A DNA stretch of 64,000 nucleotides, from NCBI RefSeq assembly GCF_003046475.1, contig NZ_PZZZ01000002.1:496001-560000 (forward strand), in the 5' to 3' direction. The position numbers and the translations under genes were made by a program. How positions within the stretch are numbered: the first letter of the stretch is position 1; every line of letters starts with the position of its first letter. The notes under the pieces are model-generated. The model worked only from the letters and a program-made list of their open reading frames with translations, was not told the DNA's origin and searched no databases. This DNA is from Mycoplana dimorpha (GTDB taxonomy: Bacteria; Pseudomonadota; Alphaproteobacteria; Rhizobiales; Rhizobiaceae). Of the stretch, positions 1,454 through 13,913 are shown one piece after another.

Positions 1454-1892
1454 GCAACTCTATCGGCTCGTCTATTACAGCCGAAACCGGATTTCCAAGG
1501 ATGGCGACGATTTCAGGCAGGCGATCGAGGAGATCCTCGCGACCAGTCGCGACAACAATTCACGCTGCGATGTGACCGGTGCATTGATCTTCAATGCGGG
1601 TTGTTTCGGCCAGGTGCTCGAAGGGCATATTGAGGACGTCGAAGCAACCTTTGAACGGATCCAGCAGGACGAGCGTCACGGCGACGTGTCGCTTCTGGCC
1701 ATCGAGCCGATCGAGCACCGCCATTTTGCCCAATGGTCGATGGCATTGGTTACCGCTCTCCCCAGCTTTGACAGCGTCTTGACCTCGATAGGACTGCAAA
1801 GCGGGTTCGACCCCAGCAAGCTGAACGGTGACGAACTCCATTCCGTATTGCACCGGCTGCTCTTGGAAGAGGAAGCCTTCCTGGCACAATAG
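1446..1892 (+). CDS. BLUF-domain blue-light sensor protein
   Basis: This 148-residue protein is essentially a single BLUF domain, which binds FAD and senses blue light. The expected photochemical residues are present: Tyr10 (LYRLVYYS), Asn38 (RDNNS), Gln56 (FGQVLEG), and Trp97/Met99 (QWSMA). There is a short helical C-terminal tail after about residue 105. It has no output domain of its own. It starts 8 bp inside the upstream GGDEF-EAL gene, so the likely output partner is that enzyme, as in fused BLUF-EAL proteins but split into two chains. The ATG at 1446 is preceded by AAAGGAGG at about 1432-1439. Confidence 0.93.
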   Translation: MSRQLYRLVYYSRNRISKDGDDFRQAIEEILATSRDNNSRCDVTGALIFNAGCFGQVLEGHIEDVEATFERIQQDERHGDVSLLAIEPIEHRHFAQWSMALVTALPSFDSVLTSIGLQSGFDPSKLNGDELHSVLHRLLLEEEAFLAQ

Positions 1893-2172: not shown

Positions 2173-2246
2173 GCGGGTATGATGTAATGGTAGCCTGTCA
2201 GCTTCCCAAGCTGAACGCGCGGGTTCGATTCCCGCTACCCGCTCCA
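2173..2246 (+). tRNA. tRNA-Gly (anticodon CCC)
   Basis: A 74-base cloverleaf can be folded. The acceptor stem GCGGGTA (2173-2179) pairs with TACCCGC (2236-2242), followed by a T discriminator and an encoded CCA. The anticodon stem TCAGC/GCTGA encloses the loop TTCCCAA with anticodon CCC. The T-arm GCGGG-TTCGATT-CCCGC is perfect. It decodes GGG. A predicted ORF overlapping it is spurious. Confidence 0.97.
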
Positions 2247-2455
2247 ATTCTTACTCCTATAACCGTTTTCGATCGAGCGAGGCTCTGCAACGCGGCGTCA
2301 GTGGCCGTGAGATCGACGATCGGCTCCGGCGAAGATAAATCCCCAAATAAGCTTCGAGCACCTGGTCGAAGAACTTCAGCACTGCCGAACGAGGTGCCGG
2401 CTCTTTGTTGCTGACCGCCAGGCATGCCGTCCCGCCGGTTTGACCGGCTTCCCAT

Positions 2456-2485
2456 TGAACCGATCGCCAGCCTCCAACGTAACAG
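2456..2485 (+). promoter_or_regulatory. RpoE-type promoter candidate for the SDR gene
   Basis: TGAACC (2456-2461), an 18-bp spacer and TAACAG (2480-2485) match, with one -35 change, the TGATCC-N18-TA(T/A)C pattern seen at three other sites in this cluster. Initiation near 2492 would give a leader of about 25 bases before the ATG at 2517 and would exclude the upstream in-frame ATGs. Confidence 0.5.
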
Positions 2486-2516
2486 GAGGATGGCAAGGAC
2501 GTTGCGGGGAACGAAC

Positions 2517-3323
2517 ATGCACGAAAACAGGAACATGGATAAGCGCGCGCGGGCCGGTGCTGCACCCGAAGGGGTCGCGTGGGTCACCGGCGCCGGTTCT
2601 GGCATCGGCCGCGCCCTGGCGATCCGGCTCGCCCGCGAGGGTTGGAATGTCGCGGCGAGCGCGCGCACTGCCGGTGACCTCGTCACGCTTGCCGCCGAAT
2701 CCCCCGGCCGCATCCGTGCCTTCCCGCTCGACGTGACGGATGCGGAGGCGGTGCGAAAGACCGTCTCCGGTATTGAGCAGGATCTCGGGCCGCTCGATCT
2801 TGCCGTCTTGAATGCGGGCACTTACGCGCGCGACTCCGCAGCTGATTTCGACGCGGCCGCCTTCCGCGCCACCATCGAGGTCAACCTGATGGGGGCCGTC
2901 CACTGCCTGGCCGCGCTGATGCCGGGCATGATGGCGCGCGGTTCGGGACACATTGCCGTCGTCTCCTCGGTTGCCGGTTATGTCGGCCTGCCCGGCGCCG
3001 CCGCCTATGGTGCGTCCAAGGCGGCGCTCATCAACATGTGCGAGGCGCTTCATCCCGAACTCACCGCCCGCGACGTCCGCCTCAGCCTCATCAATCCGGG
3101 CTTCGTCGATACGCCGCTGACGCGGAAGAACGACTTTCCGATGCCGTTTCTGATTTCAGCCGAGGCTGCCGTCGATTACATTATGGCCGGCCTGAAGAGG
3201 CAGCGCTTCGAGATCGCCTTTCCCTGGAAGATGGTCCTGTCGATGAAGTTCCTGGCGGCACTGCCTGCAAGGCTGCGCCTTGCCGCGACGCGCCGCCTTG
3301 TTCGCGGCCGACCGCAGCCCTAG
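2517..3323 (+). CDS. Short-chain dehydrogenase/reductase in the RpoE-ChrR cluster
   Basis: A 268-residue NAD(P)-dependent SDR. The Rossmann motif TGAGSGIGRAL is near residue 20, there is an NAG stretch, and the catalytic triad is Ser (VSSVAG) with Tyr-x3-Lys (YGASK). The substrate is unknown. The ATG at 2517 is chosen because a candidate RpoE-type promoter ends at 2485; an open frame runs back to 2424 but would precede the predicted transcription start. An ATG at 2535 is also possible. It converges with the Cfa-like gene, their stop codons overlapping by 4 bp. Related SDR genes accompany Cfa-like and FAD genes in other alphaproteobacterial RpoE-ChrR clusters, suggesting a role in modifying or detoxifying oxidised lipids, which is inference. 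Confidence 0.88.
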   Translation: MHENRNMDKRARAGAAPEGVAWVTGAGSGIGRALAIRLAREGWNVAASARTAGDLVTLAAESPGRIRAFPLDVTDAEAVRKTVSGIEQDLGPLDLAVLNAGTYARDSAADFDAAAFRATIEVNLMGAVHCLAALMPGMMARGSGHIAVVSSVAGYVGLPGAAAYGASKAALINMCEALHPELTARDVRLSLINPGFVDTPLTRKNDFPMPFLISAEAAVDYIMAGLKRQRFEIAFPWKMVLSMKFLAALPARLRLAATRRLVRGRPQP

Positions 3324-4540
3324 CCCTCAGGCGCCAGCTGAAACTGGCAGACATCGATCGTTCCATGGCGAAAGCCTGTCGCGCAGTAGTGCAGGTAATA
3401 GCGCCACATCCGCTTGAAGCGTGCGTCGAAGCCAAGTGCCTCGATGCGATGCCAGGCGGCGACGAAGGCCCGGTCCCAGGCAAGCAGCGTCCTTTCGTAA
3501 TCGGCCCCGAAGAATTTCCGCTCCAGCACCTTCAGCCCGCGCTCGGTCGCCGCGGCGGCGAAGGCTGTCGGCGAGGGCAGCATGCCACCGGGGAAGATGT
3601 AGGTCTGGATGAAGTCGGCGTTGCGACGGTAGTTGTCGAAACGCTCTTCGGCGATGGTGATGGACTGGACCATGGCGCGGCCGCCCGGCTTCAGCAGGGC
3701 CCGAAGTGCATCGAAATAGGTCGGCCAGTTTTCCTCGCCGACAGCCTCGAACATCTCGATCGAGACGATCTTGTCGAACCGGCCCACGCAGTCGCGGTAG
3801 TCCTGCAGCCTGATTTCCACCCTATCCGAAAGACCGGCGGCGGCGAGGCGCTCCCGCGCGAACCCGGCCTGCTCACGCGACAGGGTCAGGGCGGTTATCC
3901 GGCACCCCGCCTCGGTCGCCGCGTATTCGGCAAAGCCGCCCCAGCCGCAGCCGATTTCCAGCACGTGATCCTTCGGGCCGAGCTCCAGCGCCTCGACGAT
4001 CCGCGCATATTTGGCCCGCTGCGCCTCGGCCAGGGTCAGGTCGTCGCGGTGGAACATCGCGGACGAATAGGTCATCGTCTCGTCGAGCCAGAGCCGATAG
4101 AAATCGTTGCCGAGATCGTAGTGGAAGGCGATGTTGCGACGGCTGCCGGCGCGCGTGTTGGCACGGAGCCGATGCTTCAGGAACGCGACAAGCCTGGCGA
4201 GGCCCGGGGCGTTAAGGACGGCGGCAAGCGCCGCCTCGTTAGCAAGGCCCAGTTGCAGCACCGCACCGAGATCGGGGCTGTCCCAGTCGCCATCGATATA
4301 GGCGCGGGCAAAGCCCAGGCTGCCGCCGGTTGCCAACTTCCATACCAGCCTGCCCGACCGCACGTGGATGATTGCGGACGGACCGGGCAGCGCTCCCTGC
4401 GCATGATGCGCGCTGCCGTCCGGGAAACGGATGGCGAGTTGGCCCGCGACGATCCGGTCGGCCCAGGCGCAAAGCGAACGCGCCCACAGTGGTCGGCGGA
4501 GCCTCCTCGTGGCGACCGACTTTCCTTCAACGTTGCTCAT
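3320..4540 (-). CDS. Cyclopropane-fatty-acid-synthase-like SAM methyltransferase
   Basis: A 406-residue member of the Cfa/mycolic acid methyltransferase family, which methylates acyl-chain double bonds in membrane phospholipids using S-adenosylmethionine. The SAM motif EIGCGWGGFAEYAA, LQDYRD, EMFEAVG and the C-terminal GADYERTL-AW region are clear. Compared from memory with E. coli Cfa, the bicarbonate-site Cys (YSCAYW) reads Ser here (YSSAMF) and the site His (HTIG) reads Gln (QSIT), while the Glu and Tyr are kept. That argues for a variant reaction such as methylation without ring closure. It is third in an operon after the FAD protein and DUF1365, overlapping the latter by 14 bp, and is probably induced by RpoE. 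Confidence 0.9.
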   Translation of the reverse strand: MSNVEGKSVATRRLRRPLWARSLCAWADRIVAGQLAIRFPDGSAHHAQGALPGPSAIIHVRSGRLVWKLATGGSLGFARAYIDGDWDSPDLGAVLQLGLANEAALAAVLNAPGLARLVAFLKHRLRANTRAGSRRNIAFHYDLGNDFYRLWLDETMTYSSAMFHRDDLTLAEAQRAKYARIVEALELGPKDHVLEIGCGWGGFAEYAATEAGCRITALTLSREQAGFARERLAAAGLSDRVEIRLQDYRDCVGRFDKIVSIEMFEAVGEENWPTYFDALRALLKPGGRAMVQSITIAEERFDNYRRNADFIQTYIFPGGMLPSPTAFAAAATERGLKVLERKFFGADYERTLLAWDRAFVAAWHRIEALGFDARFKRMWRYYLHYCATGFRHGTIDVCQFQLAPEG

Positions 4541-5336
4541 AGATGGTATGGTCCTGAAATTTCCCCGCCACGATGGTCGTGGCGACCCTGCTGGCTGCGG
4601 CGCGATGGCGGTGGACGGGAATGCCCTTGCGCCAGATCCGCAGCGCCTCCCAGTGAATGCCCGCCGTCACCTTGAGCGTCATCAGCGGGTATCGGATCAG
4701 CGCCCGCAGAAGCGCGCGGTCCGACAACGCTTCCCGCCGGCCGGAGAAAGAGGCGACGAGAACCCGACCGTCCGCGTCCGATTCATCGATGCGCAGCAGC
4801 ACCCTGTCGTCCGGCGGCTCGATGTGAAAACGGTAGAAGCATGCCATCGGCATGAAGGGCGAGACGTAGAGTTCCTTGGCGCAGCCCTGTCGCACCGGCC
4901 CCTTCGCGCCGTGCTCGACCGGGATGACATAGGTGTGGCGCTCGCCGAAAGTATTGCAGACCTCGTAGAGCATCGCCCGCAGCTCGCCGTCCGGGGCGTA
5001 GCAAAAGTAGACCGTCAGCGGATTGAAGACGTAGCCAAGGATGCGTGGATAGCAGAGCACGCGGATGCTCATGCCCGGCTCCAGCCTGCCGGCTTGCCGC
5101 AGGCGCGCCTCGACCCAGGCCCGCAACCCGCCTGGGCTGCCGTCGCCGTGGTCGGCGTCCCAGAAGCTCAGCATGGCCCGGCGGTTATACCCGAACAGCC
5201 GCGAGGTCGCGCTCAGCACGTCCAATTCGTCAAGATCGAGCAGCATCGAAAAGACGCGGTAGCGGAGCCTGTGACGGCGCGGCCGAACGCGCATGTGCAT
5301 GACCTCGCCGAGAAACAGCGCCGACTGTCCGGTCAT
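4527..5336 (-). CDS. DUF1365 protein
   Basis: A 269-residue DUF1365 protein, recognised by SALFLGEVMHMRVRP-type N-terminal residues and the central YPRILGYVFNPLTVYFCY stretch. The family has no settled biochemistry but is repeatedly found between an FAD-dependent amine-oxidase-like protein and a Cfa-like methyltransferase, pointing to a shared lipid-modification pathway. The start at 5336 forms an ATGA overlap with the upstream FAD gene; an open frame extends further but would lie inside that gene. It overlaps the following Cfa gene by 14 bp, so all three are probably translationally coupled. Confidence 0.9.
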   Translation of the reverse strand: MTGQSALFLGEVMHMRVRPRRHRLRYRVFSMLLDLDELDVLSATSRLFGYNRRAMLSFWDADHGDGSPGGLRAWVEARLRQAGRLEPGMSIRVLCYPRILGYVFNPLTVYFCYAPDGELRAMLYEVCNTFGERHTYVIPVEHGAKGPVRQGCAKELYVSPFMPMACFYRFHIEPPDDRVLLRIDESDADGRVLVASFSGRREALSDRALLRALIRYPLMTLKVTAGIHWEALRIWRKGIPVHRHRAAASRVATTIVAGKFQDHTIYEQR

Positions 5337-6691
5337 TCCGCCGCCTCCAATCGGGGCGGGAGCGCGATCCGGCCGGATTCGTCGCGCAACCGCCATGGCC
5401 GCCGCACGTCGGCGACGCTCTCGGCGGCGGCAAGCCCGGATTGCAAGCCGTCCTCATGGAAGCCGAACCCGAAGTAAGCGCCACAGAACCATGTGTTGCG
5501 CCGGCCCTGCAACCGCCATAGCTGCTGCTGCGCATCGAGTGCTCGCTGGTCGAATAGCGGATGGGTGTAGCGATAGCTTCCGACGACCTTTTTATCCGCG
5601 ATCGCGCGGGTGGGATTAAGCGTGACGAACAGCGGATGGCGCCTGTCGAGGTTCTGCAAACGGTTCATCCAGTAGGTCACGCACAGGGGCTGGACGCCTT
5701 CGTCGCCGCTTTCGCCGATATAGTTCCAGCTCGACCAGACACGCCGACGCCTCGGCATCAGGTTCTCGTCGGAATGCAGCACGGCCAGGTTGTCCGTGTA
5801 GCGGAAGGCGCCGAGCAGGTCGCGCTCCTCATGATCGGCATCGGTCAGCAGGCCGAGCGCCTGGTCGGCGTGCGTGGCAATGACGACATCGGTAAACGTA
5901 TCGTCATTTCCTCTCATGTCCGTCACGACGACGCGGCCGTTCTTCCGCGAGATGCTGCGGACCCCGACACCGGCACGGACACCTTCGATGAAGCTCGCGC
6001 TCAGGCGGTGGACATATTCCTGGCTGCCGCCAAGAACGGTTCGCCATTTCGGTCGGCCGGCGAGGCTGAGCAGGCCGTGGCTGGCAAAGAACCGGACAAA
6101 GGCAAGCAGCGGATAGGCGCGCATCTCGCGCGCCGTGGTCGACCAGATCGCCGCCCCCATCGGCATGAGGTGATCCTCGATGAAGGCCGGCGCATAATCG
6201 TTGCGGTCGAGATATTCGCCCAAGGTGACCCCGTGGAGGTCCGGGCGAGCCAGCAGGGAGGGCGCCTCGCGGTAGAAGCGCAAAATGTCCCGCATCATCC
6301 GCCAGAAGCGGGGCCGGATGACATTGCCCCGCTGGCCGATCAGACCGTTCAGTCCCGAGCCGGAATATTCGAGCTTGCCGCCCTCGAGCGAGGCGGCGAA
6401 GGACATGTCGGAAGCGGCCGTCGGCACCCCTGTTTCCTTGAACAGGGCTACCAGGTTTGGATAGTTGCGCTCGTTATAGACGATAAAGCCGGTATCGACG
6501 GGGATCACTCCGTCGTCCGTCGGCACCATGACGGTATTCGAGTGGCCACCGAGGCGCCCGTCAATTTCGTAAAGCGTGACACTGAGCTTGCGGCTTAGCA
6601 GCCAGGCCGCCGAAAGACCCGAGATCCCCGATCCGACCACCGCCACACGGCGCGCATGGTCAGGCAACTCCCTGCTGGAATGAATTTGCAC
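5333..6691 (-). CDS. FAD-dependent amine-oxidase-like oxidoreductase
   Basis: A 452-residue flavoprotein. The dinucleotide-binding motif VVGSGISGLSAAW lies near residue 15, followed by an acidic end-of-beta-2 region (YEIDGRLGGHSNT), the typical start of the NAD(P)-binding/FAD amine oxidase family. A GTG start at 6691 is preferred: it has GGAGAGG a few bases upstream, whereas the longer ATG frame would cross the promoter. It is the first gene of the FAD-DUF1365-Cfa operon and is divergent from rpoE. Homologues in Rhodobacter RpoE regulons have been linked to unusual (furan or branched) fatty acid synthesis. A desaturase/dehydrogenase role on methylated acyl chains is the best guess but is inference. 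Confidence 0.88.
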   Translation of the reverse strand: MQIHSSRELPDHARRVAVVGSGISGLSAAWLLSRKLSVTLYEIDGRLGGHSNTVMVPTDDGVIPVDTGFIVYNERNYPNLVALFKETGVPTAASDMSFAASLEGGKLEYSGSGLNGLIGQRGNVIRPRFWRMMRDILRFYREAPSLLARPDLHGVTLGEYLDRNDYAPAFIEDHLMPMGAAIWSTTAREMRAYPLLAFVRFFASHGLLSLAGRPKWRTVLGGSQEYVHRLSASFIEGVRAGVGVRSISRKNGRVVVTDMRGNDDTFTDVVIATHADQALGLLTDADHEERDLLGAFRYTDNLAVLHSDENLMPRRRRVWSSWNYIGESGDEGVQPLCVTYWMNRLQNLDRRHPLFVTLNPTRAIADKKVVGSYRYTHPLFDQRALDAQQQLWRLQGRRNTWFCGAYFGFGFHEDGLQSGLAAAESVADVRRPWRLRDESGRIALPPRLEAAE

Positions 6692-6724
6692 TATGCCTCT
6701 CCGATCCTGTAACGGCGTTGATCG

Positions 6725-6754
6725 TTGATACGCAGCCCAGGGTGTAGCGGATCG
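6725..6754 (-). promoter_or_regulatory. RpoE-type promoter candidate for the FAD-DUF1365-cfa operon
   Basis: On the minus strand CGATCC (6754-6749), 18 bp, then TATCAA (6730-6725). This mirrors the rpoE promoter lying 27 bp away on the other strand. Initiation near 6718 leaves about 27 bases before the GTG at 6691. Confidence 0.6.
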
Positions 6755-6780
6755 GTGGAGGTCGAAATTTGGTGTACCGG

Positions 6781-6810
6781 TGATCCGGTATCTGACTCGT
6801 GGCGTATCTC
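6781..6810 (+). promoter_or_regulatory. RpoE autoregulatory promoter candidate
   Basis: TGATCC (6781-6786), an 18-bp spacer and TATCTC (6805-6810). TGATCC is the -35 element known for alphaproteobacterial RpoE controlled by ChrR. It would transcribe rpoE-chrR with a leader of roughly 90 bases. Confidence 0.65.
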
Positions 6811-6910
6811 CGGCATGAACACAATCGTTCCCCTGAGCGCGCCGGCGTGGAAGAATCGTCATATAGTGGGGCATTGGCGCTGCGCGCCGTTGCGTAGCGA
6901 AGTGGGAACA

Positions 6911-7495
6911 ATGGGTATGGGCCGCGAGACTGATGCCGGCACAGGTGCTGACATGCGCGAACTTCTCTGCGCGGTGGGCTCACGGCGCGACATCGACGCC
7001 TACGAGGTTCTCTTCCGCCACTTTGCACCCCGCGTGAAGGCGTACATGGCGCGGATGGGCGGCGACAGTCAGCTGGCCGAAGAACTGATGCAGGAGACAA
7101 TGATCGCCGTCTGGAACAAGGCAGACCGGTTCGATCCGTCGAAAGGCGCGGCCTCGACCTGGATCTTCACCATTGCCCGAAACCTCCGCATTGATGCGTT
7201 TCGACGTGAAAAGCGCCCCGAATTCGATCCCAGCGATCCTGCCTTCGTGCCCGACGACATGGCCCCGGCCGATGCCGAGCTCGATGCCCGCGAGGCCTCC
7301 GAGCAACTGCACGAAGCCATCGCTGCCCTGCCGGAGGAGCAGGCGGCGCTGCTGAAATTGTCCTTTTTCGAAGACCAGTCGCACAGTGCGATCGCGGCGC
7401 GCCTCAACCTTCCGCTCGGGACGGTCAAGTCGCGCATGCGGCTCGCCTTCGACAAGTTGCGGGCCGCGCTCGCCCGTTCGGGAGACCTATTGTGA
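6911..7495 (+). CDS. rpoE: ECF sigma factor RpoE (ChrR-controlled)
   Basis: A 194-residue group-IV sigma factor. Region 2 (LAEELMQETMIAVWNKADRF, then STWIFTIARNLRIDAFRR) is near residues 55-95, and region 4 (LPEEQAALLKLSFFEDQSHS-IAARLNLPLGTVKSRMRLA) lies at the C-terminus. Its GTGA overlap with a gene encoding an unmistakable ChrR anti-sigma factor identifies it as the singlet-oxygen-type RpoE. The start is ATG 6911 or ATG 6917; the open frame back to 6725 contains the promoter. It probably directs its own transcription and that of the surrounding genes. Confidence 0.95.
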   Translation: MGMGRETDAGTGADMRELLCAVGSRRDIDAYEVLFRHFAPRVKAYMARMGGDSQLAEELMQETMIAVWNKADRFDPSKGAASTWIFTIARNLRIDAFRREKRPEFDPSDPAFVPDDMAPADAELDAREASEQLHEAIAALPEEQAALLKLSFFEDQSHSAIAARLNLPLGTVKSRMRLAFDKLRAALARSGDLL

Positions 7496-8157
7496 CCATC
7501 CGTCACCATGTCAGCGACGACCTGCTCTTGAGCTATGCGGCCGGCAGCCTTGCCGAAGGCTGGAGCATAGCGGTTGCCACGCACCTTGCCCTCTGCCCCG
7601 CCTGCCGCCGCCGCCTGGCCCTGGCCGAAAGCATCGGCGGCGAGCTGCTCGAGACCGAAACCCTTGCCGACCATGGTTCCGTCGATGACGCCTGGGCCAG
7701 CGTGCGGAGACGCCTTCAGCAGCCCATGAAGCCCTCGGCACCCGCGCGCGAAACGCCGCCCGCACGCCAACCCGGCGGCTTGCCGGAGCCGCTCCGCTCC
7801 TACGTCGGCGGCGACATCGAGACGCTCGCATGGCGGTCGCTCGGCCGCGGCGCCTACCACATACCGATCAGGACCGCGGATCGCGAGACCAAGGTGCGCT
7901 TGCTGCGGATCCCGGCGGGCAAGCCGGTGCCGGAGCACAGCCATGGCGGCCGCGAGCTGACCCTGGTGCTCAGCGGCAGCTTTGTGGACGGTGACGAAAT
8001 CTTCGCGCGCGGCGACCTTGAGGACGCGGACGCAAGCCTGACGCACCAGCCTGTCGCCACGCCCGAGACCGACTGCATCTGTCTTGCGGTGACGGACGCG
8101 CCGCTGAGATTCCGCAGTTGGGCTGTGCGGGCGATCCAGCCATTCCTGGGGATTTGA
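7492..8157 (+). CDS. chrR: Anti-sigma factor ChrR (zinc ASD plus cupin)
   Basis: A 221-residue ChrR. The N-terminal zinc anti-sigma domain has ligands His6, His31, Cys35 and Cys38 (HLALCPAC), the same numbering as Rhodobacter sphaeroides ChrR. The C-terminal cupin-like domain keeps the second metal set His149, His151, Glu155 and His185, the R. sphaeroides set shifted by eight. This protein should sequester RpoE and release it on singlet oxygen or organic peroxide stress. The GTG start lies inside the rpoE stop codon (GTGA), implying coupled synthesis. All ligands being present argues for a working sensor. Confidence 0.96.
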   Translation: MTIRHHVSDDLLLSYAAGSLAEGWSIAVATHLALCPACRRRLALAESIGGELLETETLADHGSVDDAWASVRRRLQQPMKPSAPARETPPARQPGGLPEPLRSYVGGDIETLAWRSLGRGAYHIPIRTADRETKVRLLRIPAGKPVPEHSHGGRELTLVLSGSFVDGDEIFARGDLEDADASLTHQPVATPETDCICLAVTDAPLRFRSWAVRAIQPFLGI

Positions 8158-8194
8158 GCGGGCGCCCTCGCCCTTTAGAGCGCCGAGAGCATCG

Positions 8195-8611
8195 ATGATC
8201 GCAAGCTACGTCACCGCCTATGCCGCAACAGCCGTTGTCTTCTTCGGTATCGACTTCGTGTGGCTGTCGACGATATCCACCAGCTTCTACCGCAGCCGGA
8301 TCGGCAGCCTGCTCCTGGAACAGCCCAATTTCAGCGTCGCCGGTCTCTTCTATCTCGTCTATGTCGCCGGGGTCGTGCACTTCGCGGTGATGCCGGCAGT
8401 CAATGGCGCGAGCTGGACGACGGCGCTGGTCAATGGCGCACTGCTGGGGCTTGTTGCCTATGGCACCTACGACATGACCAACCTGGCGATACTCAAGAAC
8501 TGGTCTGCCACGGTCAGCGTTGTCGACACGATCTGGGGTGTGGCGCTGACGGCTACTGCGGCAACCGTCGGATACCTCGTTACGACCTGGATGGCAGGCA
8601 AGCCTGTGTGA
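8195..8611 (+). CDS. DUF2177 membrane protein
   Basis: A 138-residue protein with about four transmembrane helices and the DUF2177 signature (GLFYLVYVAGVVHFAVMPA; GLVAYGTYDMTNLAILKNW; VVDTIWG). Function is unknown. It lies 37 bp after chrR on the same strand, so it is probably the third gene of the rpoE operon, and DUF2177 genes recur near RpoE-ChrR loci. A membrane role in photooxidative stress is inferred only from context. Confidence 0.9.
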   Translation: MIASYVTAYAATAVVFFGIDFVWLSTISTSFYRSRIGSLLLEQPNFSVAGLFYLVYVAGVVHFAVMPAVNGASWTTALVNGALLGLVAYGTYDMTNLAILKNWSATVSVVDTIWGVALTATAATVGYLVTTWMAGKPV

Positions 8612-8684
8612 CCTGTTTTGCCGCCCAGGCAGCAGCTAGACCTGGCAGTGACGCAAAATCTTTCACAACGCCTTTAGGCGCCCG

Positions 8685-9137
8685 TCAGTTCATAACCACC
8701 ACGCCGGCTGTAAGAGCCGTGGCGAACGCAGTCCATGCCGCATAAGGCAGAAACAGAATGGCTGCGACCCGATCCCTTTTCCAGGCAGTCGCGATAAAGG
8801 CCAGCACGGCCGCCAATGCAGCAATCACCACGACCAGCGCCAGGCCCGGCTGGTGTGCCCCGAAGAAGACGGGCGACCATAGAAAATTCAGGGCCATCTG
8901 AACGAACCACAGCTTCATCGCTATGCTGTTTCGGTCGCGAACCCAGCAACGCCAGCCGGCAATTGCGATGACGATGTAGAGCACGGTCCAGACCGGCGCA
9001 AAGACCCAGTTTGGCGGCGTGAACGACGGCTTGTTCAGGCTGGCATACCATTCGCCCGGCAGGGTGACGTAGCCGATGAGCATGCCTGTCAGGACCACCG
9101 CCAGCACGAAGACCAACAGGGAGAAAGCTTTAGGCAT
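8685..9137 (-). CDS. tspO: TspO/MBR family tryptophan-rich sensory protein
   Basis: A 150-residue, five-helix TspO. Conserved segments include LNKPSFTPPNWVFAPVW, ALNFLWSPVFFGAHQPGLAL and FLPYAAWTAFATAL. TspO binds porphyrins; in Rhodobacter it modulates tetrapyrrole and pigment gene expression. The ATG at 9137 with AAAGGAAACCTG upstream is chosen over a longer frame that enters the transporter gene. It overlaps the end of the transporter gene by 8 bp and is the last gene of the RpoE-linked operon. Porphyrins are the main singlet-oxygen photosensitisers, so its presence here makes biological sense. Confidence 0.93.
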   Translation of the reverse strand: MPKAFSLLVFVLAVVLTGMLIGYVTLPGEWYASLNKPSFTPPNWVFAPVWTVLYIVIAIAGWRCWVRDRNSIAMKLWFVQMALNFLWSPVFFGAHQPGLALVVVIAALAAVLAFIATAWKRDRVAAILFLPYAAWTAFATALTAGVVVMN

Positions 9138-10560
9138 CAGGTTTCCTTTCAATCTGAGCTTGACGACGACGACGAGCGACGGCCGCGGGCGGAGCGGATT
9201 CCTTATCAACGGCCTTGCCGCGTCCGGCGGTGGCGTCGATCTGCGCTCGTAGCGATCGTTGCGCGTCTTCGCCGAGCGGAAAATTCCACATGACCGCTAT
9301 GGCAGCTGCCTTGGGCAGAATGGGAAGCCAGGCATAAAGCGCTGAGAGCGTGACGAGGGCCATCTCCGGCATCCGCTGACCGCCTGAAGTGTCGAAACCC
9401 GACCAGGCAAGGACGGGAAACACCAGCCCGACGCTGAGCGCGAGCGACAGCTTGGTCGCAAGGCCCCATGCAGCGAAATAGAGGCCTGAGCGCTGTTCCC
9501 CGGAATTTGCCGTGTCGTAGTCGATGACATCGGCCTGGATCGCCGGCGGCAAGGCGAGGTCGAAACCCAGCAGCAGGCCGGTTGCCGCGCAGATGATGGT
9601 GAAGGCGACGATGTCGCCCGCGCCGAGGAAACCTGCAAAGACGAAAACCGCGCAGGCGATGAGCATCGCCCAGCACCATGTGCGGTGCTTGCCCGCCTTC
9701 GACGAAAGCCAGACGGCCAGCGGCACGCCGAGGATCCCGAAAAGGAAATACAGGAACAGCAGAGGACCTCGCAGTTCGGCAGCATCGAGCCGTTCGGAGA
9801 CGAAGTAGAGAAACAGCGTCGCCGGTATCGCATTGCCAAAGCCATTGAGCAGAAAGGCGACGACGAGCCGGGCGAATGGCCGGTTGCGCGCGACAAAGCG
9901 CAGGCTGTCCGCCAGGCTCAGCCGTGTCGTCGAGCGATTGGCCGGCTCCGGCACGGTCTTCACGGCGAGCACGCCGGCAGCAGGCAACAGCACTGCCGTC
10001 AGGACAGCGACGGCGGCGAGGCCATGGAAGCCGTCAATCCGGTCGAGCCCGACCGCGAAGGGCAGCACCACCGCAATCAATGTTCCGATCAGGGTCGCCC
10101 CTTCACGAAAGGCGGAAACGACCGAGCGTCCGCGATAGTCCGTCGAAAGTTCCGCGCCCCAGGCGGTGTAGGGCAGGAGCGTTGCAGTATAGCCGACCGA
10201 AAGCAATGCGCCCCAGAAGCCGAGATAGCCGACACCAGCGCCTGAAGAGGGCCAGAACACCATGAACGCGGCCAGTGCCGTCAGGGGCAGGGAAAGCAGG
10301 AAAAATGTCCGCCGCCGCCCGGACCCGATGAACAGGCGATCGCAGAGCCAGCCGATAATAGGGTCGCTCGCCGCGTCGAGGAGCCGGATCAGCAACAGGG
10401 CTGTTCCGACGGCAGCGATGGGGAGGCCGACATTCTGAGCGTAGAAGGTGGGCACGACGACGTAGAGCGGCAGTGCCACCGCTGCCAGCGGTATCGCCGG
10501 CAACGCATAGCACGAAAGCATCACCACCTGCGCCCACCGGCGCTTGTCGGGCTTGCCCAT
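9130..10560 (-). CDS. MFS transporter, GPH (MelB-like) family
   Basis: A 476-residue, twelve-helix transporter. LLLIRLLDAASDPIIGWLCDR near residue 60 is the cation-binding signature of glycoside-pentoside-hexuronide:cation symporters, and YFAAWGLATKLSLALSVGL is in the C-terminal half. The substrate is unknown; related GPH proteins in alphaproteobacterial RpoE-ChrR clusters are not sugar transporters by context and might move lipids or pigments. The start abuts the stop of the upstream small gene (TAG immediately followed by ATG), and its end overlaps tspO by 8 bp. Confidence 0.9.
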   Translation of the reverse strand: MGKPDKRRWAQVVMLSCYALPAIPLAAVALPLYVVVPTFYAQNVGLPIAAVGTALLLIRLLDAASDPIIGWLCDRLFIGSGRRRTFFLLSLPLTALAAFMVFWPSSGAGVGYLGFWGALLSVGYTATLLPYTAWGAELSTDYRGRSVVSAFREGATLIGTLIAVVLPFAVGLDRIDGFHGLAAVAVLTAVLLPAAGVLAVKTVPEPANRSTTRLSLADSLRFVARNRPFARLVVAFLLNGFGNAIPATLFLYFVSERLDAAELRGPLLFLYFLFGILGVPLAVWLSSKAGKHRTWCWAMLIACAVFVFAGFLGAGDIVAFTIICAATGLLLGFDLALPPAIQADVIDYDTANSGEQRSGLYFAAWGLATKLSLALSVGLVFPVLAWSGFDTSGGQRMPEMALVTLSALYAWLPILPKAAAIAVMWNFPLGEDAQRSLRAQIDATAGRGKAVDKESAPPAAVARRRRQAQIERKPDA

Positions 10561-10959
10561 CTAGTCGCCGACGAGCGCTGTGCCGCTTGCGCCATCATCA
10601 CGCAGCCATGAGATCTTTCGCTCGCCCAGCCGCCGGATCTTGAAGCAGAACCGGCGGCCGTTGTACCAACTCGGCCATTTCTGGCAAAGCGAGTTATCCT
10701 CGACCCACCAGCGGCCCTCTTCCTTCGGTGCAAACATGCTGGCCGCCGAAATGCCCGAGATATCGCCAACGACAACGCCGTCCGTGCGATACCGCAACGG
10801 CAGGGCAATACCGAAAGGCGTGTTCAGCCGAACCGTCTCTCCGGCAATCAGCTTCCTGATCTTCGGGCCGTCCAGTTCCTCGCTAGAAGCTGCCCCGGCG
10901 GTCAGGCACAGCGTGGACAGCGCGAGCAGCGACAGTCTTGTTGGCGCAGGATTTGACAT
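10561..10959 (-). CDS. Uncharacterised secreted protein in RpoE cluster
   Basis: A 132-residue protein with a Sec-type signal peptide (LSLLALSTLCLTAGAAS). The mature part is about 110 residues with a W/C-rich centre (WWVEDNSLCQKW, NGRRFCFKI), probably a small periplasmic beta domain with one disulfide. I do not recognise a named family with certainty. The ATG at 10959 has AGGAAGG at a good distance; an upstream ATG at 10977 lacks a ribosome site. It lies between DUF3833 and the GPH transporter, whose start codon touches its stop. Confidence 0.78.
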   Translation of the reverse strand: MSNPAPTRLSLLALSTLCLTAGAASSEELDGPKIRKLIAGETVRLNTPFGIALPLRYRTDGVVVGDISGISAASMFAPKEEGRWWVEDNSLCQKWPSWYNGRRFCFKIRRLGERKISWLRDDGASGTALVGD

Positions 10960-10991
10960 GATCAAGGCCTTCCTCATGTTGCAGGTTCCGG

Positions 10992-11029
10992 CTTTGCTGG
11001 TCTGGTCGGTCTTTGCTGGTCTGGCCGGT
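10992..11029. repeat. 19-bp tandem duplication
   Basis: Two adjacent 19-bp units (10992-11010 and 11011-11029) differ at one base. They lie in the short gap between the DUF3833 gene and the small secreted protein gene. Probably a slippage product. Confidence 0.7.
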
Positions 11030-11040
11030 CCGGCCCGGCT

Positions 11041-11547
11041 TCAGCGGCGTTGGAATTCCACACGGGTCAGGGCCACCGGGAACCCGAACTTGGTCACGAG
11101 CGCCGTGTTGAGCACCGTGCCGTCGTCTCGCAGCTTCATCGCGTCGTAAAAGCGCACGCGGTTGCCCTTTCCTTGCGGGTCGAGGTCGACAAGGTAGTTG
11201 AAGCGGGCCGTGTCGCCGCTGATCGTGACCAGGGTTTCCCCGATGACGTCCTCGCGTCTGCCGCGATACCGGTCGTTGCCGATCTTTTCGAAGCGCCAGG
11301 TTTTCCGATCGCGCTCGCCATCGTCATAGATGAAATCCTCGACCAGGGTCAGCGTCTTGCCGTTCCACTTGCCACGAAGATCGGCGGTGAACTTGCGCTT
11401 GACGCCATTGATGGCACTGAAGCTGCCGGCAGCAAATGTTCTGCCGGCAAAGTAACCTTCCAGCGAAAAGCCGCCTGCCGCCGCGGGTGCCAAGCCAAGC
11501 GACAGTGTCATCGCCAGGCCCGCCAGGCCGATTTTACCGCTGCGCAT
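11041..11547 (-). CDS. DUF3833 secreted protein
   Basis: A 168-residue protein with a signal peptide ending near AAAGG and a DUF3833 domain (GYFAGRTFAAGSF; LVEDFIYDDGERDRKTW; YRGRREDVIGET; TKFGFPVALTRVEF). Family members are often lipoproteins, but this one has no lipobox cysteine. It is the first gene of the DUF3833-secreted protein-GPH-TspO operon. The start at 11547 has GGAGG about 11 bp upstream and a RpoE-type promoter a further 40 bp upstream. Role unknown; membership of the oxidative-stress regulon is inferred. Confidence 0.88.
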   Translation of the reverse strand: MRSGKIGLAGLAMTLSLGLAPAAAGGFSLEGYFAGRTFAAGSFSAINGVKRKFTADLRGKWNGKTLTLVEDFIYDDGERDRKTWRFEKIGNDRYRGRREDVIGETLVTISGDTARFNYLVDLDPQGKGNRVRFYDAMKLRDDGTVLNTALVTKFGFPVALTRVEFQRR

Positions 11548-11864
11548 CGCATGCCTCCGCCCCTGAATGATCTGAGTTCAGCGGATGTTACGGTGCGAGA
11601 AGCCGGCTGGATCACCTGCGGTAGCGGACCAGCCTTGAGAATCGTTCGGCTTCGCCTGGTACCCGGCGAGCCGGTTTCCGTGCTCGGACCGTCCCAACCC
11701 GGCCCTACGCGGCGAGCTGCAGATACATCAGCCGGAGGTTACTGCGAGGGACGTGGGTATGACCCGCTGAGCACACGGGCGCTATGCCTCCATGCCTTAC
11801 CGGGGCCTTCTGGCCTGCAACGACCGTCAGGTCTTCGGTTGTGCCTTGCCGGTTTGCGGACTTG
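11548..11864. other. Intergenic region between DUF3833 and GT2 genes
   Basis: This stretch holds the RpoE-type promoter at 11585-11614. The rest (11615-11864) is the downstream flank of the glycosyltransferase gene, in which I see no convincing ORF, hairpin terminator or repeat. Confidence 0.5.
11585..11614 (-). promoter_or_regulatory. RpoE-type promoter candidate for the DUF3833-tspO operon
   Basis: On the minus strand TGATCC (11614-11609), 18 bp, then TAACAT (11590-11585). The spacing and -35 are the same as at the rpoE promoter. Initiation near 11578 gives a leader of about 30 bases. Confidence 0.6.
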
Positions 11865-13913
11865 TCAGTTGGTTCGACCCGTAGACGCGCGCCCCCCAGC
11901 TGCGCGGATCGGCGCCGGCCAAAGTCTCGACAGCCACCGGGAAGCCAACCTGCCGGCGCCTTGCGGCCGGGTTTCGCCCGGAGCAGGCGCCGTCGGTCGG
12001 TGAGCGGTCTTGTTCCAGAAGAACGGCTTTCGGCAAAGTTCGGCCACAGCCAGCCAGGCCGCAACCGACATCATCAGCCAGTACGCCCCGACCAGCAGCC
12101 AGCGCCAGCCGACGGACGCGCGCTCCTGCCGGCTCATCGGCATCAGGCCAAGAGCGATGAAGACGGCATAGCTGCCGAAGATATTGACGAAGTCCACGGC
12201 GAACAGGCCGATCGCCAGGCCGCTGGCGACGAAAGGCCCGTCGCCGGCCATCAGCCAGCCGAGATAGCCGACATAAAGCATGAGCAGCGGGTGGGCGAGC
12301 GACGACAGAAGCAATCCGCCGATCAAAACCTGCAACACGGCGAACGGCAGCAGGCCCATGTCGCCGGCCAGCTGACCCGGCCGGCGCATCAGCACGAGCC
12401 AGGTCTGTAGCCAGCCCTTGAACCAGCGGGTGCGCTGACCGGTCCAGGTGCGCAGGTCCTCCGGCGCATCCTCGAGCGTCGGCAGACGCAGGGTGGCAGA
12501 GCGATAGCCCATCCGATGAAGGCGCATGCCGAGGTCGGCATCCTCGGTAACGTTGAACGGGTCCCAGCCGCCGCTGCGTTTCAGCGCCGCCGTCCGGAAA
12601 TGGTTCGATGTTCCGCCGAGCGGCATCGGCAGTCGCCCTGCGGCCAGGAACGGCAGCAGGCGGCGGAACAGTCCCGCGTATTCGAGCGAGAACAGCGCGC
12701 TCACCCAGGATGCGCTTCCGTTCGAGATGACGAGGGGCGCCTGCAGGCAGGCCAGTTGATCCGGCGCTGACCGGAAGGTCGCCCAGGCCTCGTTGAGCTG
12801 CCCCGGATGCGGGCGGTCCTCGGCGTCGTAGATAACGAGAAACTCGCCGCGGGCCGCCGGCAGCGCATAGGAAAGCGCTTTTGGCTTGGTGCGCGGCAGG
12901 CCGGGAGGCACCTCCACGATCTCGTAATGCGGCCCGAGCGGCAGCGAACGCAGCGCTTCGAGGGTTTCGAGGTCGTCCGCCTCGCAGATCAGCTTGATGT
13001 CGAGGCTGGCGCGTGGCCAGTCGAGCCTGTCCAGAACCGCCACCAGTTGGCGGGCGACCGCGGCCTCGCGGTAGAGGGCGACGAAGACCGAGTAGACGGG
13101 ACGCGGTGATGTGGGGACCGGCGCCGTCGGCGTGGCCCCATTGCGTAAGGGGCGGACAAGCGCCCAAAACCGGATGCCCAAGGTGGCCAAGAAAAAAGGG
13201 GTCAGGACCAGGTGCAGGGCGAGGATGGTATTGGCGGGCGCCAGCGCGGCGGTGAACAGCAGTGCGGTGAGGCCGGCGCCGACATGGAAGCCCTGACGCC
13301 CCCAAAAGGTGAGACGGGCGCTGTGTTGCGGGGCCTCGTCGAACAGCCGGTTGACCGTTTCGCGTGAGCGTCGCGGCGCCCCGGCGCGCCAGACGGCGCT
13401 GCGGACCGCCTGCGGCGTCGCGACGACCAGGTGAGCGCGCAGCTTCGGCTCCCTTGCGAGCGCCGCCCGGAACTGTCCGATCCGCGCGGTGCTTGGCACG
13501 ACTGCGGTGACCGGCGGCCGCGAGCGAAAGGTCATGCGAAGCATCTCCGGGCGGACCAACTGGCCGTCTATTTCATTGATGTCGAGAACCTCCCGCTCGT
13601 CGATGCTGCGCAGAAAGGGCAGGCCAAGAAGCTCGGCAAGCGCTTCGTAGTAGGTATCGCTCTGGACCATGCCGGAGGCGAGCAGTTCCGCCTCGAGGCT
13701 GGTCCCGTTCCGCGTCGCCCGCACGGTATGCTCCAGGATCAGCGGCTTGCCGAAGCCGAGCCCGCGCAACAGCCGCGCCTCTTCGAGAAGATCCGGACGG
13801 AGCGAGGCCGTCGCCGTCGCACCGGTTGCGGATGCGCCGTCGGGCGGTCGTTCCACGGCCGCCGGGATTGCGGTGGAAATGGACGACTGATCGGGATAGT
13901 CTGCCAATCGCAT
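11865..13913 (-). CDS. GT2 glycosyltransferase with MshEN-like N-terminal domain
   Basis: A 682-residue membrane glycosyltransferase. Residues about 40-110 resemble a MshEN/GspE N-terminal domain (SLEAELLASGMVQSDTYYEA-A-LLGLPF), a fold that binds c-di-GMP in other proteins. Two transmembrane helices (about 208-260) precede a GT2 domain with the acidic motifs YDAEDRP and TEDADLG and the processive-type GQRTRW motif. Several helices follow, then a basic, proline-rich tail. It probably polymerises an extracellular polysaccharide. It is divergent from a binding-protein gene 58 bp away, with no other polysaccharide genes beside it. Confidence 0.85.
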   Translation of the reverse strand: MRLADYPDQSSISTAIPAAVERPPDGASATGATATASLRPDLLEEARLLRGLGFGKPLILEHTVRATRNGTSLEAELLASGMVQSDTYYEALAELLGLPFLRSIDEREVLDINEIDGQLVRPEMLRMTFRSRPPVTAVVPSTARIGQFRAALAREPKLRAHLVVATPQAVRSAVWRAGAPRRSRETVNRLFDEAPQHSARLTFWGRQGFHVGAGLTALLFTAALAPANTILALHLVLTPFFLATLGIRFWALVRPLRNGATPTAPVPTSPRPVYSVFVALYREAAVARQLVAVLDRLDWPRASLDIKLICEADDLETLEALRSLPLGPHYEIVEVPPGLPRTKPKALSYALPAARGEFLVIYDAEDRPHPGQLNEAWATFRSAPDQLACLQAPLVISNGSASWVSALFSLEYAGLFRRLLPFLAAGRLPMPLGGTSNHFRTAALKRSGGWDPFNVTEDADLGMRLHRMGYRSATLRLPTLEDAPEDLRTWTGQRTRWFKGWLQTWLVLMRRPGQLAGDMGLLPFAVLQVLIGGLLLSSLAHPLLMLYVGYLGWLMAGDGPFVASGLAIGLFAVDFVNIFGSYAVFIALGLMPMSRQERASVGWRWLLVGAYWLMMSVAAWLAVAELCRKPFFWNKTAHRPTAPAPGETRPQGAGRLASRWLSRLWPAPIRAAGGRASTGRTN

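What the first reader, a model, noticed from the sequence alone, without database searches (positions are those of the whole stretch)
2456..11614. Four matching RpoE-type promoters define a compact regulon
TGATCC (or CGATCC, TGAACC), exactly 18 bp, then TA(T/A)C occurs at 2456 (+), 6725 (-), 6781 (+) and 11585 (-). Each lies before one of the four transcription units around rpoE-chrR. The identical spacing at all four is unlikely by chance and predicts the whole 2.5-11.6 kb block is RpoE-controlled.
Basis: partly seen in the sequence, partly recalled or inferred. Interest (0 to 1): 0.7.

Follow-up and report, generated by a model that had tools for sequence, protein, structure and literature searches.

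The report
Transferred RpoE-ChrR stress-response gene cassette
A nine-kilobase block carrying a predicted light-damage-sensing switch, the lipid-protection genes it should control and matching on-switches before each gene group appears to have moved between bacteria as one unit, and its master gene seems to begin almost exactly where its RNA is predicted to begin.

Summary
The four sites are real (two minus-strand coordinates are 2 nt off) and match the published RpoE/ChrR (ECF11) promoter, TGATCC-N16-CGTA. They precede four units: rpoE-chrR-DUF2177; the furan-fatty-acid genes ufaD-ufaO-ufaM; an SDR; and DUF3833-hypothetical-MFS-TspO. Sites recur before orthologous genes in 80 related loci (rpoE 80/80, ufaD 78/80, SDR 36/53). 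Genome-wide, 4 of 20 pattern hits lie in these 9 kb (reversed control: 10 in the genome); the other 16 look like background. That regulon is already known.

Three things go beyond the finding. (1) The block is a horizontally acquired insertion beside tRNA-Gly. It aligns in one 9,166-bp segment (80%) with Aminobacter carboxidus, differs in order and tree position from three same-genus copies, and is missing at this site in all six same-genus genomes held. Related loci sit on plasmids. (2) An in-frame ATG lies 8-9 nt after rpoE's own -10 in 79 of 81 loci, predicting a nearly leaderless mRNA and a 31-43-residue N-terminal extension. (3) The back-to-back rpoE and ufaD promoters are 24-28 bp apart around an A/T tract in 63 of 68 divergent loci. 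Points 2 and 3 are predictions; no transcript was mapped.

The parts
2173..2246 (+). tRNA-Gly (CCC); its 3' end marks the left side of the inserted segment
   Evidence: ARAGORN; followed 75-231 bp later by the glycosyltransferase-side homology in six same-genus genomes
2247..11994 (.). segment present here and missing at the orthologous site of six same-genus genomes; the regulon block fills 2427-11614
   Evidence: blastn and empty-site comparison
2456..2481 (+). RpoE-type promoter of the SDR gene, TGAACC-N16-CGTA
   Evidence: site before 36 of 53 SDR orthologues
2517..3323 (+). SDR family oxidoreductase (RSP1087-like); an in-frame ATG at 2490 also exists
   Evidence: Pfam PF00106
3320..4540 (-). 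ufaM-like SAM-dependent fatty-acyl methyltransferase (CMAS family)
   Evidence: Pfam PF02353; pathway as in PMC7380195 passages
4527..5336 (-). ufaO-like DUF1365 protein (furan-forming oxygenase by homology)
   Evidence: Pfam PF07103; PMC7380195 passages
5333..6691 (-). ufaD-like FAD-dependent fatty-acyl desaturase; first gene of the ufaD-ufaO-ufaM unit
   Evidence: Pfam PF01593/PF13450; PMC7380195 passages
6729..6754 (-). RpoE-type promoter of ufaD-ufaO-ufaM, CGATCC-N16-CGTA
   Evidence: site before 78 of 80 orthologues
6755..6780 (.). 26-bp gap between the two back-to-back -35 boxes, with a central A/T tract (AAATTT)
6781..6806 (+). autoregulatory promoter of rpoE-chrR, TGATCC-N16-CGTA
   Evidence: site before 80 of 80 orthologues
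6815..7495 (+). rpoE, predicted long form from the ATG 8 nt after CGTA; shorter alternative starts at 6911 or 6917
   Evidence: PDB 2q1z homologue
7492..8157 (+). chrR, zinc-dependent anti-sigma factor
   Evidence: TIGR02451 above cut-off; PDB 2z2s
8195..8611 (+). DUF2177 membrane protein, third gene of the rpoE unit
   Evidence: Pfam PF09945; follows chrR in 68 of 68 loci with divergent ufaD and rpoE
8685..9137 (-). TspO/MBR family protein, last gene of the DUF3833 unit
   Evidence: Pfam PF03073
9130..10560 (-). MFS transporter (RSP1089-like)
   Evidence: Pfam PF13347
10561..10977 (-). hypothetical protein (called smallA in scripts), no family found
   Evidence: no Pfam hit; no NCBIfam hit
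11041..11547 (-). DUF3833 protein (RSP1088-like; called smallB in scripts)
   Evidence: Pfam PF12915
11589..11614 (-). RpoE-type promoter of DUF3833-hypothetical-MFS-TspO, TGATCC-N16-CGTA
   Evidence: TGATCC site before DUF3833 in Aminobacter carboxidus and three Kaistia loci (spacing 16 in three of the four, 17 in L047)

Best explanation
This is a complete, self-contained ECF11 sigma-factor regulon that was acquired horizontally as one cassette. Inferred working: ChrR holds RpoE inactive. Singlet oxygen or organic peroxides cause ChrR to be degraded, and free RpoE-RNA polymerase fires the four TGATCC-N16-CGTA-type promoters. It amplifies its own operon, makes furan fatty acids through UfaM-UfaD-UfaO (which in R. 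sphaeroides are needed for full activation of the sigma factor), and turns on the SDR, DUF3833, MFS, TspO and DUF2177 genes. Shown here by sequence: recurrence of the sites at orthologous genes, gene content, single-block homology to Aminobacter, absence at the orthologous site in the genus, and tree conflict. Inferred: inducer, RpoE dependence in this host, a nearly leaderless start of rpoE, and use of the central A/T tract as a shared upstream element by the two back-to-back promoters.
For: Four sites at fixed spacing. Sites before orthologues with at most one mismatch: rpoE 80/80, ufaD 78/80, SDR 36/53; control upstream regions gave MFS 0/12, TspO 0/13, ufaM 2/66, DUF2177 2/80. RpoE and ChrR match the R. 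sphaeroides structures (5e-43, 1e-52). The published consensus is the same. ChrR and the DUF1365 protein co-occur in 61 genomes as 30 both, 3 ChrR only, 4 DUF1365 only, 24 neither, Fisher p 7e-10 (two weak ChrR matches, G008 and G029, of the 35 were counted as absent; related genomes are not independent). Transfer: one 9,166-bp alignment at 80% with Aminobacter carboxidus, window 2427-11558; the 11 proteins of the block are 76-87% identical to Aminobacter, and the 10 with a counterpart are 34-68% identical to same-genus copies; AU test against one clade with the genus p 2e-32; the site lacks the block in 6 of 6 same-genus genomes; related loci on plasmids.
Against: No expression data. The SDR site is missing or weak in 17 of 53 loci, and ufaD in L062 and L117. 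DUF1365 occurs without ChrR in 4 of 61 genomes and ChrR without DUF1365 in 3. Low identity to the genus is not by itself proof of transfer: the right-flank glycosyltransferase, which lies at the same site, is also only 65-70% identical across the genus. The edges of the insertion share no word of 10 bp or more and no recombinase was found among the 11 block proteins and 4 flanking genes scanned, so the mode of entry is unknown. No plasmid record covers 80% of the block at DNA level. For the rpoE start: codon-position substitutions are not significantly biased (57/57/75, p 0.18), an internal ATG with a moderate Shine-Dalgarno is common, and the annotations of three plasmid copies use other starts.
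Confidence: 0.87

Rival explanations
1. The block is an ordinary vertically inherited core RpoE regulon that clusters because of shared ancestry; relatives without it simply lost it.
For: Three of six same-genus genomes also carry a version of the block, clustering of these genes is widespread, and the genus is diverse: the glycosyltransferase beside the block is only 65-70% identical among its members.
Against: Same-genus copies are about 69% identical in DNA, have a different gene order and lie elsewhere; the six genomes have only 75-231 bp at this site. The window groups with Aminobacter (99% SH-aLRT) and the tree with window and genus as one clade is rejected. A dehydrogenase gene elsewhere is 94-98% identical in protein across the six genomes.
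Confidence: 0.06
2. rpoE is translated only from the internal ATG (6911/6917) with a Shine-Dalgarno. The ATG next to the start of the RNA is incidental and the about 100-nt leader is untranslated.
For: An internal in-frame ATG exists in 76 of 79 loci; the best one is at the position of window 6917 in 48, and the mean Shine-Dalgarno energy at the best ATG is -4.8 against -2.1 for control codons (taking the best of several favours the ATG side). Annotated starts on three plasmids differ from the upstream ATG. The solved R. sphaeroides chain aligns only from residue 39 of the long form. Codon-position bias is not significant. In B. japonicum EcfF, a sigma factor of another ECF group, a start site overlapping an annotated ATG was taken as evidence for a more distal start codon (PMC3420878 passages).
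Against: ATG at +8/+9 in 79 of 81 loci, in frame and open in 79 of 79. The alternative sense frames are open in 2 and 35 of 79 (antisense frames in 57, 54 and 31, so openness alone is weak), and at least 23 length changes on the tree keep the frame. Outside the order 10 of 15 sigma loci with a site show the same arrangement.
Confidence: 0.35
3. The constant 24-28 bp gap with an A/T tract is shared ancestry in a short spacer, not a functional shared upstream element.
For: The SDR promoters lack the tract. The rows are related, and the rpoE leader is also of similar length in most loci.
Against: Gap flanks have diverged while the central A/T run (mean 7.7 against 4.3 in shuffles) stays centred 12.7 and 13.5 bp from the two -35 boxes in 63 loci.
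Confidence: 0.4
4. The four motif matches are chance.
For: The pattern has 16 further matches in the genome, close to the control count of 10.
Against: Fixed spacing and recurrence at orthologous positions in 80 loci.
Confidence: 0.01

Closest known systems
Rhodobacter sphaeroides sigmaE-ChrR (ECF11) core regulon with RSP1087-1091 and RSP2144
   Same: Sigma/anti-sigma pair, promoter consensus, UfaD-UfaO genes immediately upstream of rpoE-chrR, UfaM, SDR, DUF3833-type lipoprotein, MFS (PMC6852236 sections 7, 15, 16; PMC7380195, PMC5507510 and PMC7074977 passages; that RSP1088 and RSP1089 are DUF3833 and MFS is partly recalled)
   Different: All units including ufaM lie in one 9-kb block. DUF2177 and TspO are not among the R. 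sphaeroides targets named in what I read. No site was found at the photolyase gene or at three rpoH-family genes of this genome. The block is horizontally acquired. The predicted N-terminal extension of RpoE is absent from the solved R. sphaeroides chain.
Furan fatty acid pathway UfaM-UfaD-UfaO (R. sphaeroides, R. palustris)
   Same: Homologues of all three enzyme families in overlapping order ufaD-ufaO-ufaM
   Different: Activity not tested; no search for the second methylase FufM was made
P. syringae PSPTO_1043 and S. oneidensis RpoE2 regulons
   Same: TGATCC-n16-CGTA promoters upstream of rpoE-chrR and of a phr-cfa cluster (passages)
   Different: Targets listed there such as katG, phrB and glyoxalase are not in this block
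Leaderless mRNAs of Sinorhizobium meliloti (171 mapped)
   Same: AUG at the transcription start in a related bacterium (PMC3616915 passages)
   Different: No ECF11 rpoE transcript is reported in the passages I saw

Membership tests
ECF11 RpoE-ChrR system | ECF sigma with regions 2 and 4, homologous to R. sphaeroides RpoE | tested here: met
   Pfam r2 and r4; best PDB match 2q1z RpoE, 5e-43
ECF11 RpoE-ChrR system | Adjacent ChrR-type anti-sigma with N-terminal zinc ligands and cupin domain | tested here: met
   TIGR02451 207 bits, cut-off 124.5; PF12973; H6, H31, C35, C38 present (their role is recalled)
ECF11 RpoE-ChrR system | TGATCC-N16-CGTA promoter upstream of rpoE | tested here: met
   Site 6781-6806; before 80 of 80 orthologues
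ECF11 RpoE-ChrR system | Induction by singlet oxygen with ChrR degradation | not testable with these tools
   Needs an experiment
Furan fatty acid biosynthesis cluster | UfaM, UfaD and UfaO families together | tested here: met
   PF02353, PF01593, PF07103; not compared residue by residue with the R. sphaeroides enzymes
Furan fatty acid biosynthesis cluster | Product 9M5-FuFA formed | not testable with these tools
   Needs lipid analysis
tRNA-targeted integrative element | Insertion at a tRNA 3' end | tested here: met
   Insert begins after tRNA-Gly 3' end
tRNA-targeted integrative element | Direct repeat of the tRNA end at the far edge | tested here: not met
   No shared word of 10 bp or more between 2101-2460 and 11541-12100
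tRNA-targeted integrative element | Own integrase | tested here: not met
   None among the 11 block proteins scanned against Pfam; so it is not filed as such an element
Leaderless mRNA gene (rpoE) | Transcript 5' end at the start codon | not testable with these tools
   Only the position of the ATG relative to CGTA is known

The most novel reading that the evidence does not exclude
The ECF11 RpoE-ChrR furan-fatty-acid regulon is a portable stress-response module that moves between Alphaproteobacteria with its own sigma factor, anti-sigma factor, effectors and promoters. It is wired for host independence: the rpoE start codon is placed at the start point of its own promoter, so the sigma factor is made as a nearly leaderless, N-terminally extended long form as well as a short form from an internal start. 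It shares one A/T-tract upstream element with the ufaD promoter, so that the switch and its feedback enzymes fire together.
Probability: 0.3. Interest if true: 0.68.

Novelty: new variant of a known kind. Interest (0 to 1): 0.5.

Why it matters
A whole sigma-factor regulon that travels as one block would show how a complete stress response can be gained in one step. A start codon placed 8-9 nt after the gene's own alternative-sigma promoter, kept in frame through at least 23 length changes, makes a direct and cheap prediction about how this sigma factor is translated. It also suggests that annotated starts of RpoE proteins of this family deserve checking.

Tried and rejected
Extra regulon members in the genome: of the 16 off-block YGAWCC-N16-CGTA sites, 12 lie inside frames with coding-like composition, and a thirteenth (L142) inside an amidase gene. 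L125, L128 and L143 were not placed inside a coding frame; L143 lies inside a longer open frame whose far part matches cytochrome families. The best intergenic candidate, a perfect site (L128) about 73 bp upstream of an alcohol dehydrogenase gene, has no counterpart upstream of that gene in the 14 relatives with a clear orthologue that I examined, of 25 relatives searched (a one-mismatch string in L184 lies, as I read it, in the coding end of the preceding gene), so I treat it as chance. The photolyase gene (site search) and three rpoH-family genes (site search) have no site in the fetched loci. My reading ignored that loci are not turned to the match strand; one search corrected it.

Spacing N17: 33 hits in the 80 loci. 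One each was assigned to ufaD, DUF3833 and SDR; 30 are unassigned, among them 9 TGATCC sites near 4 kb in Allorhizobium and A. vitis type loci. Not resolved.

Fixed gap as a universal rule: rejected, because class-wide divergent pairs have gaps of 12-37 bp within a search range of 10-40. In one search five loci were given a wrong ufaD site by my regular expression and one none; searches corrected these (2 of the 63 loci in the 24-28 range, L062 and L117, have one mismatch in the ufaD site, and the string taken in L117 differs from the one chose).

Codon-position bias in the rpoE extension: not significant in 21 independent pairs. The 86 overlapping pairs show third-position excess (198/162/338) but are not independent.

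SDR as a second leaderless gene: 23 of 39 loci have ATG or GTG at +6 to +10, but only 5 in frame with the aligned gene, so not claimed.

tRNA as attachment site: no edge repeat, and 14 of 15 other loci scanned hold no tRNA at all; L050 holds a tRNA-Leu. A published mention of block transfer or of a leaderless ECF11 rpoE was not found in the listings, nor in the passages; PMC7074977 only speculates that the different R. capsulatus rpoE-chrR locus was acquired by transfer. Papers outside that library were not searched. Dufour et al. 2008 is known to me only through the review PMC6852236.
Full report
Observation. The pattern YGAWCC-N18-TAWC occurs exactly four times in the 64-kb window, at 2456 (+), 6727 (-), 6781 (+) and 11587 (-). 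The shuffle mean was 0.47 and 0 of 100 shuffles reached four. Because the spacer ends in CG at all four, the motif is YGAWCC-N16-CGTA. In the genome of the window (4,592,697 bases, 22 contigs) this has 20 matches, of which 4 are in the block; the reversed control has 10. With CGTAWC and any first base there are 8, of which 4 are in the block, control 4. The exact TGATCC form has 6, of which 2 are in the block, control 0.

What the genes are. The sites head four units, inferred from strand, order and overlap. The rpoE unit is an ECF sigma gene, a ChrR-family anti-sigma gene and DUF2177. The ufaD unit is an FAD-dependent amine-oxidase-like gene, DUF1365 and a CMAS-type methyltransferase, with overlapping ends; these are the families of UfaD, UfaO and UfaM, which make a furan fatty acid in R. 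sphaeroides (PMC7380195, passages). The third unit is an SDR gene. The fourth is DUF3833, a hypothetical gene, an MFS transporter and TspO. RpoE and ChrR match the solved R. sphaeroides proteins 2q1z and 2z2s, and ChrR keeps H6, H31, C35 and C38 (that these bind zinc is recalled).

The motif is known. P. syringae PSPTO_1043 was studied by ChIP-seq, with consensus TGATCC-n16-CGTA (PMC5507510, passages). S. oneidensis RpoE2 has the same boxes, with starts mapped for rpoE2 and one target (PMC4336711, passages). The review PMC6852236 (sections 7, 15 and 16 read) describes a conserved core regulon of about eight genes including rpoE-chrR and furan fatty acid genes. PMC7074977 (passages) states that RSP_1090/91 lie immediately upstream of rpoE-chrR in many Rhodobacteraceae.

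Conservation. One scan of genome contigs with the window RpoE gave 185 encoding stretches, of which the best 80 loci were kept. In these 80 loci (1.54 Mb) spacing N16 gives 168 hits against 1 for the reversed motif; N12-N15 and N18-N20 give 3-14; N17 gives 33; reversed motifs at the other spacings give 2-22. With at most one mismatch (first base free, spacing 15-17) a site precedes rpoE in 80 of 80, ufaD in 78 of 80, SDR in 36 of 53, and the DUF3833 and hypothetical genes in 15 of 21 each. The last two counts include weak matches and are less secure. Control upstream regions: MFS 0/12, TspO 0/13, ufaM 2/66, DUF2177 2/80. The chrR (29/80) and DUF1365 (31/79) counts come from N15 in 29 of 29 and 28 of 31 cases, mostly with an imperfect -10; I read them as coding sequence. 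The -35 box depends on the gene: rpoE TGATCC in 75 and TGATCT in 5; ufaD mostly CAATCC (29) or CGATCC (26); SDR mostly TGAACC (29 of 36).

Is the regulon only this block? Off-block sites look like background: 12 of 16 lie inside coding-like frames and a thirteenth in an amidase gene. One perfect intergenic site is not found upstream of the orthologue in 14 relatives. The photolyase gene and three rpoH-family genes carry no site. Weaker sites could have been missed.

Horizontal transfer. blastn of the first 20 kb of the window against Aminobacter carboxidus (L046, 20.6 kb) gives one alignment over 60 bases long, 79.9% over 9,166 bases, window 2427-11558. The 11 block proteins are 76-87% identical to L046; the 10 that have a counterpart are 34-68% identical to the three same-genus copies, whose hypothetical-DUF3833-MFS genes lie on the other side. 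Identity alone does not decide: a dehydrogenase elsewhere is 94-98% identical in all six same-genus genomes, but the glycosyltransferase that flanks the block is only 65-70%. Order, tree and site do. In a quick tree of four joined proteins (84 rows) the window lies with Aminobacter (99% SH-aLRT) and the three same-genus rows form their own group elsewhere. A tree with window and genus as one clade is rejected, p-AU 2e-32 (two trees, LG+G4; the group was chosen after the blastn result). In six of six same-genus genomes the tRNA-Gly end is followed 75-231 bp later by the sequence that in the window starts near 11995, so about 9.7 kb are extra here. Both junctions lie on one contig between genus-typical sequence, which speaks against contamination. 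Three of the six gave no match to ChrR or DUF1365 anywhere.

Mobility context. In L046 the block is flanked by an integrase-core transposase fragment and an IstB gene. Six Aminobacter plasmids of 519-578 kb carry rpoE-chrR-ufaD-ufaO at 79% DNA identity over 43-44% of the block; no plasmid record covers 80% of it at DNA level. A DUF1365 homologue is found on 98 (76 with at least 80% coverage) and a ChrR homologue on 90 of 72,556 plasmid records. Annotated examples are pSR1, pCTYH.Ch1_2 and an R. daejeonense plasmid, which carry the same divergent promoter pair. I did not check all records for both genes. Of those records 77 of 98 and 75 of 90 are typed non-mobilizable. How the block entered the window's genome is unknown: the edges share no word of 10 bp or more, and no recombinase was found among the 11 block proteins scanned.

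rpoE start. In 79 of 81 loci (window plus 80) an ATG begins exactly 8 or 9 nt after CGTA of the rpoE promoter, and in 79 of 79 it is in frame with rpoE and open. For ufaD, SDR, the hypothetical gene and DUF3833, in-frame start codons at +6 to +10 are found in 4 of 78, 5 of 39, 0 of 8 and 0 of 5 (SDR has one in any frame in 23 of 39). The two rpoE exceptions are L052 and L061. In the 79, the other sense frames of the same stretch are open in 2 and 35, the antisense frames in 57, 54 and 31. On the tree, extension length changes at least 23 times, always keeping the frame (only the 79 in-frame loci, less three duplicates, enter this count, so the exceptions are outside it). Class-wide, of 385 genomes searched with a divergent-promoter pattern, 27 matched, the window's included (reversed control 0). 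Of their 27 loci, 19 hold an RpoE-like gene and 16 of these have a site within 300 bp; 11 of the 16 (window included) show ATG at +8 to +10 in frame and open. Against this, codon-position bias is not significant (57/57/75, p 0.18), an internal ATG, most often at the position of window 6917 (48 loci), has a better than average Shine-Dalgarno, and three plasmid annotations use other starts. In B. japonicum EcfF, of another ECF group, a start site overlapping an annotated ATG was read as a wrong annotation (PMC3420878 passages). The most likely state is two starts, a nearly leaderless long form and a short form. In the window the extension before 6911 is 32 residues; across the 79 loci it is 31-43. 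Leaderless AUG transcripts are common enough in S. meliloti (171 mapped; PMC3616915, passages) for this to be plausible. From the 6-bp distance reported for EcfF I expect the AUG within about 0-4 nt of the RNA start; this is inference.

Back-to-back promoters. In 68 loci with ufaD divergent from rpoE the two -35 boxes are 24-28 bp apart in 63 (26 bp in 38). The gap holds a central A/T run (mean 7.7 against 4.3 in shuffles) centred about 13 bp from each box. Some of the 12 non-divergent rpoE promoters listed keep an A/T-rich stretch there; SDR promoters do not. Outside the order the gap ranges from 12 to 37 bp, with 10-40 allowed by the search. [quoted passage not shown]

Verdict. The finding is right and the regulon known. 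The added value is that this regulon is a horizontally acquired, self-contained block, and that its sigma gene is predicted to start almost at its own transcription start.

Noticed in passing
window 65-1892: A GGDEF-EAL protein gene overlaps a BLUF blue-light sensor gene just left of tRNA-Gly and the block. Neither was found in the stretches fetched around the orthologous site of six same-genus genomes.
   Followed up: partly
L068, L070, L077, L086, L101, L104, L107, L108, L110 near 3.9-4.2 kb: A TGATCC-N17-CGTA site lies about 0.9 kb before DUF3833 in nine Allorhizobium or A. vitis type loci; the gene it serves was not identified.
   Followed up: no
L052-L061, L064, L083: Brucella/Ochrobactrum loci keep the rpoE promoter region, but ufaD-ufaO-ufaM and DUF2177 are rearranged to the other side of chrR; the ufaD promoter there mostly reads TGAACC.
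   Followed up: no
L066: A bin named Arenimonas carries a block that groups tightly with Ciceribacter; probably a misassigned contig, possibly transfer.
   Followed up: no
L128 (G000:C4:458259-458284): A perfect TGATCC-N16-CGTA site upstream of an alcohol dehydrogenase gene, not found upstream of its orthologue in 14 relatives.
   Followed up: yes
L044, L045, L250: Aminobacter ciceronei, a related bin and the Aminobacter plasmid pSR1 have the block without ufaM beside ufaO, so the methylase step may be encoded elsewhere.
   Followed up: no
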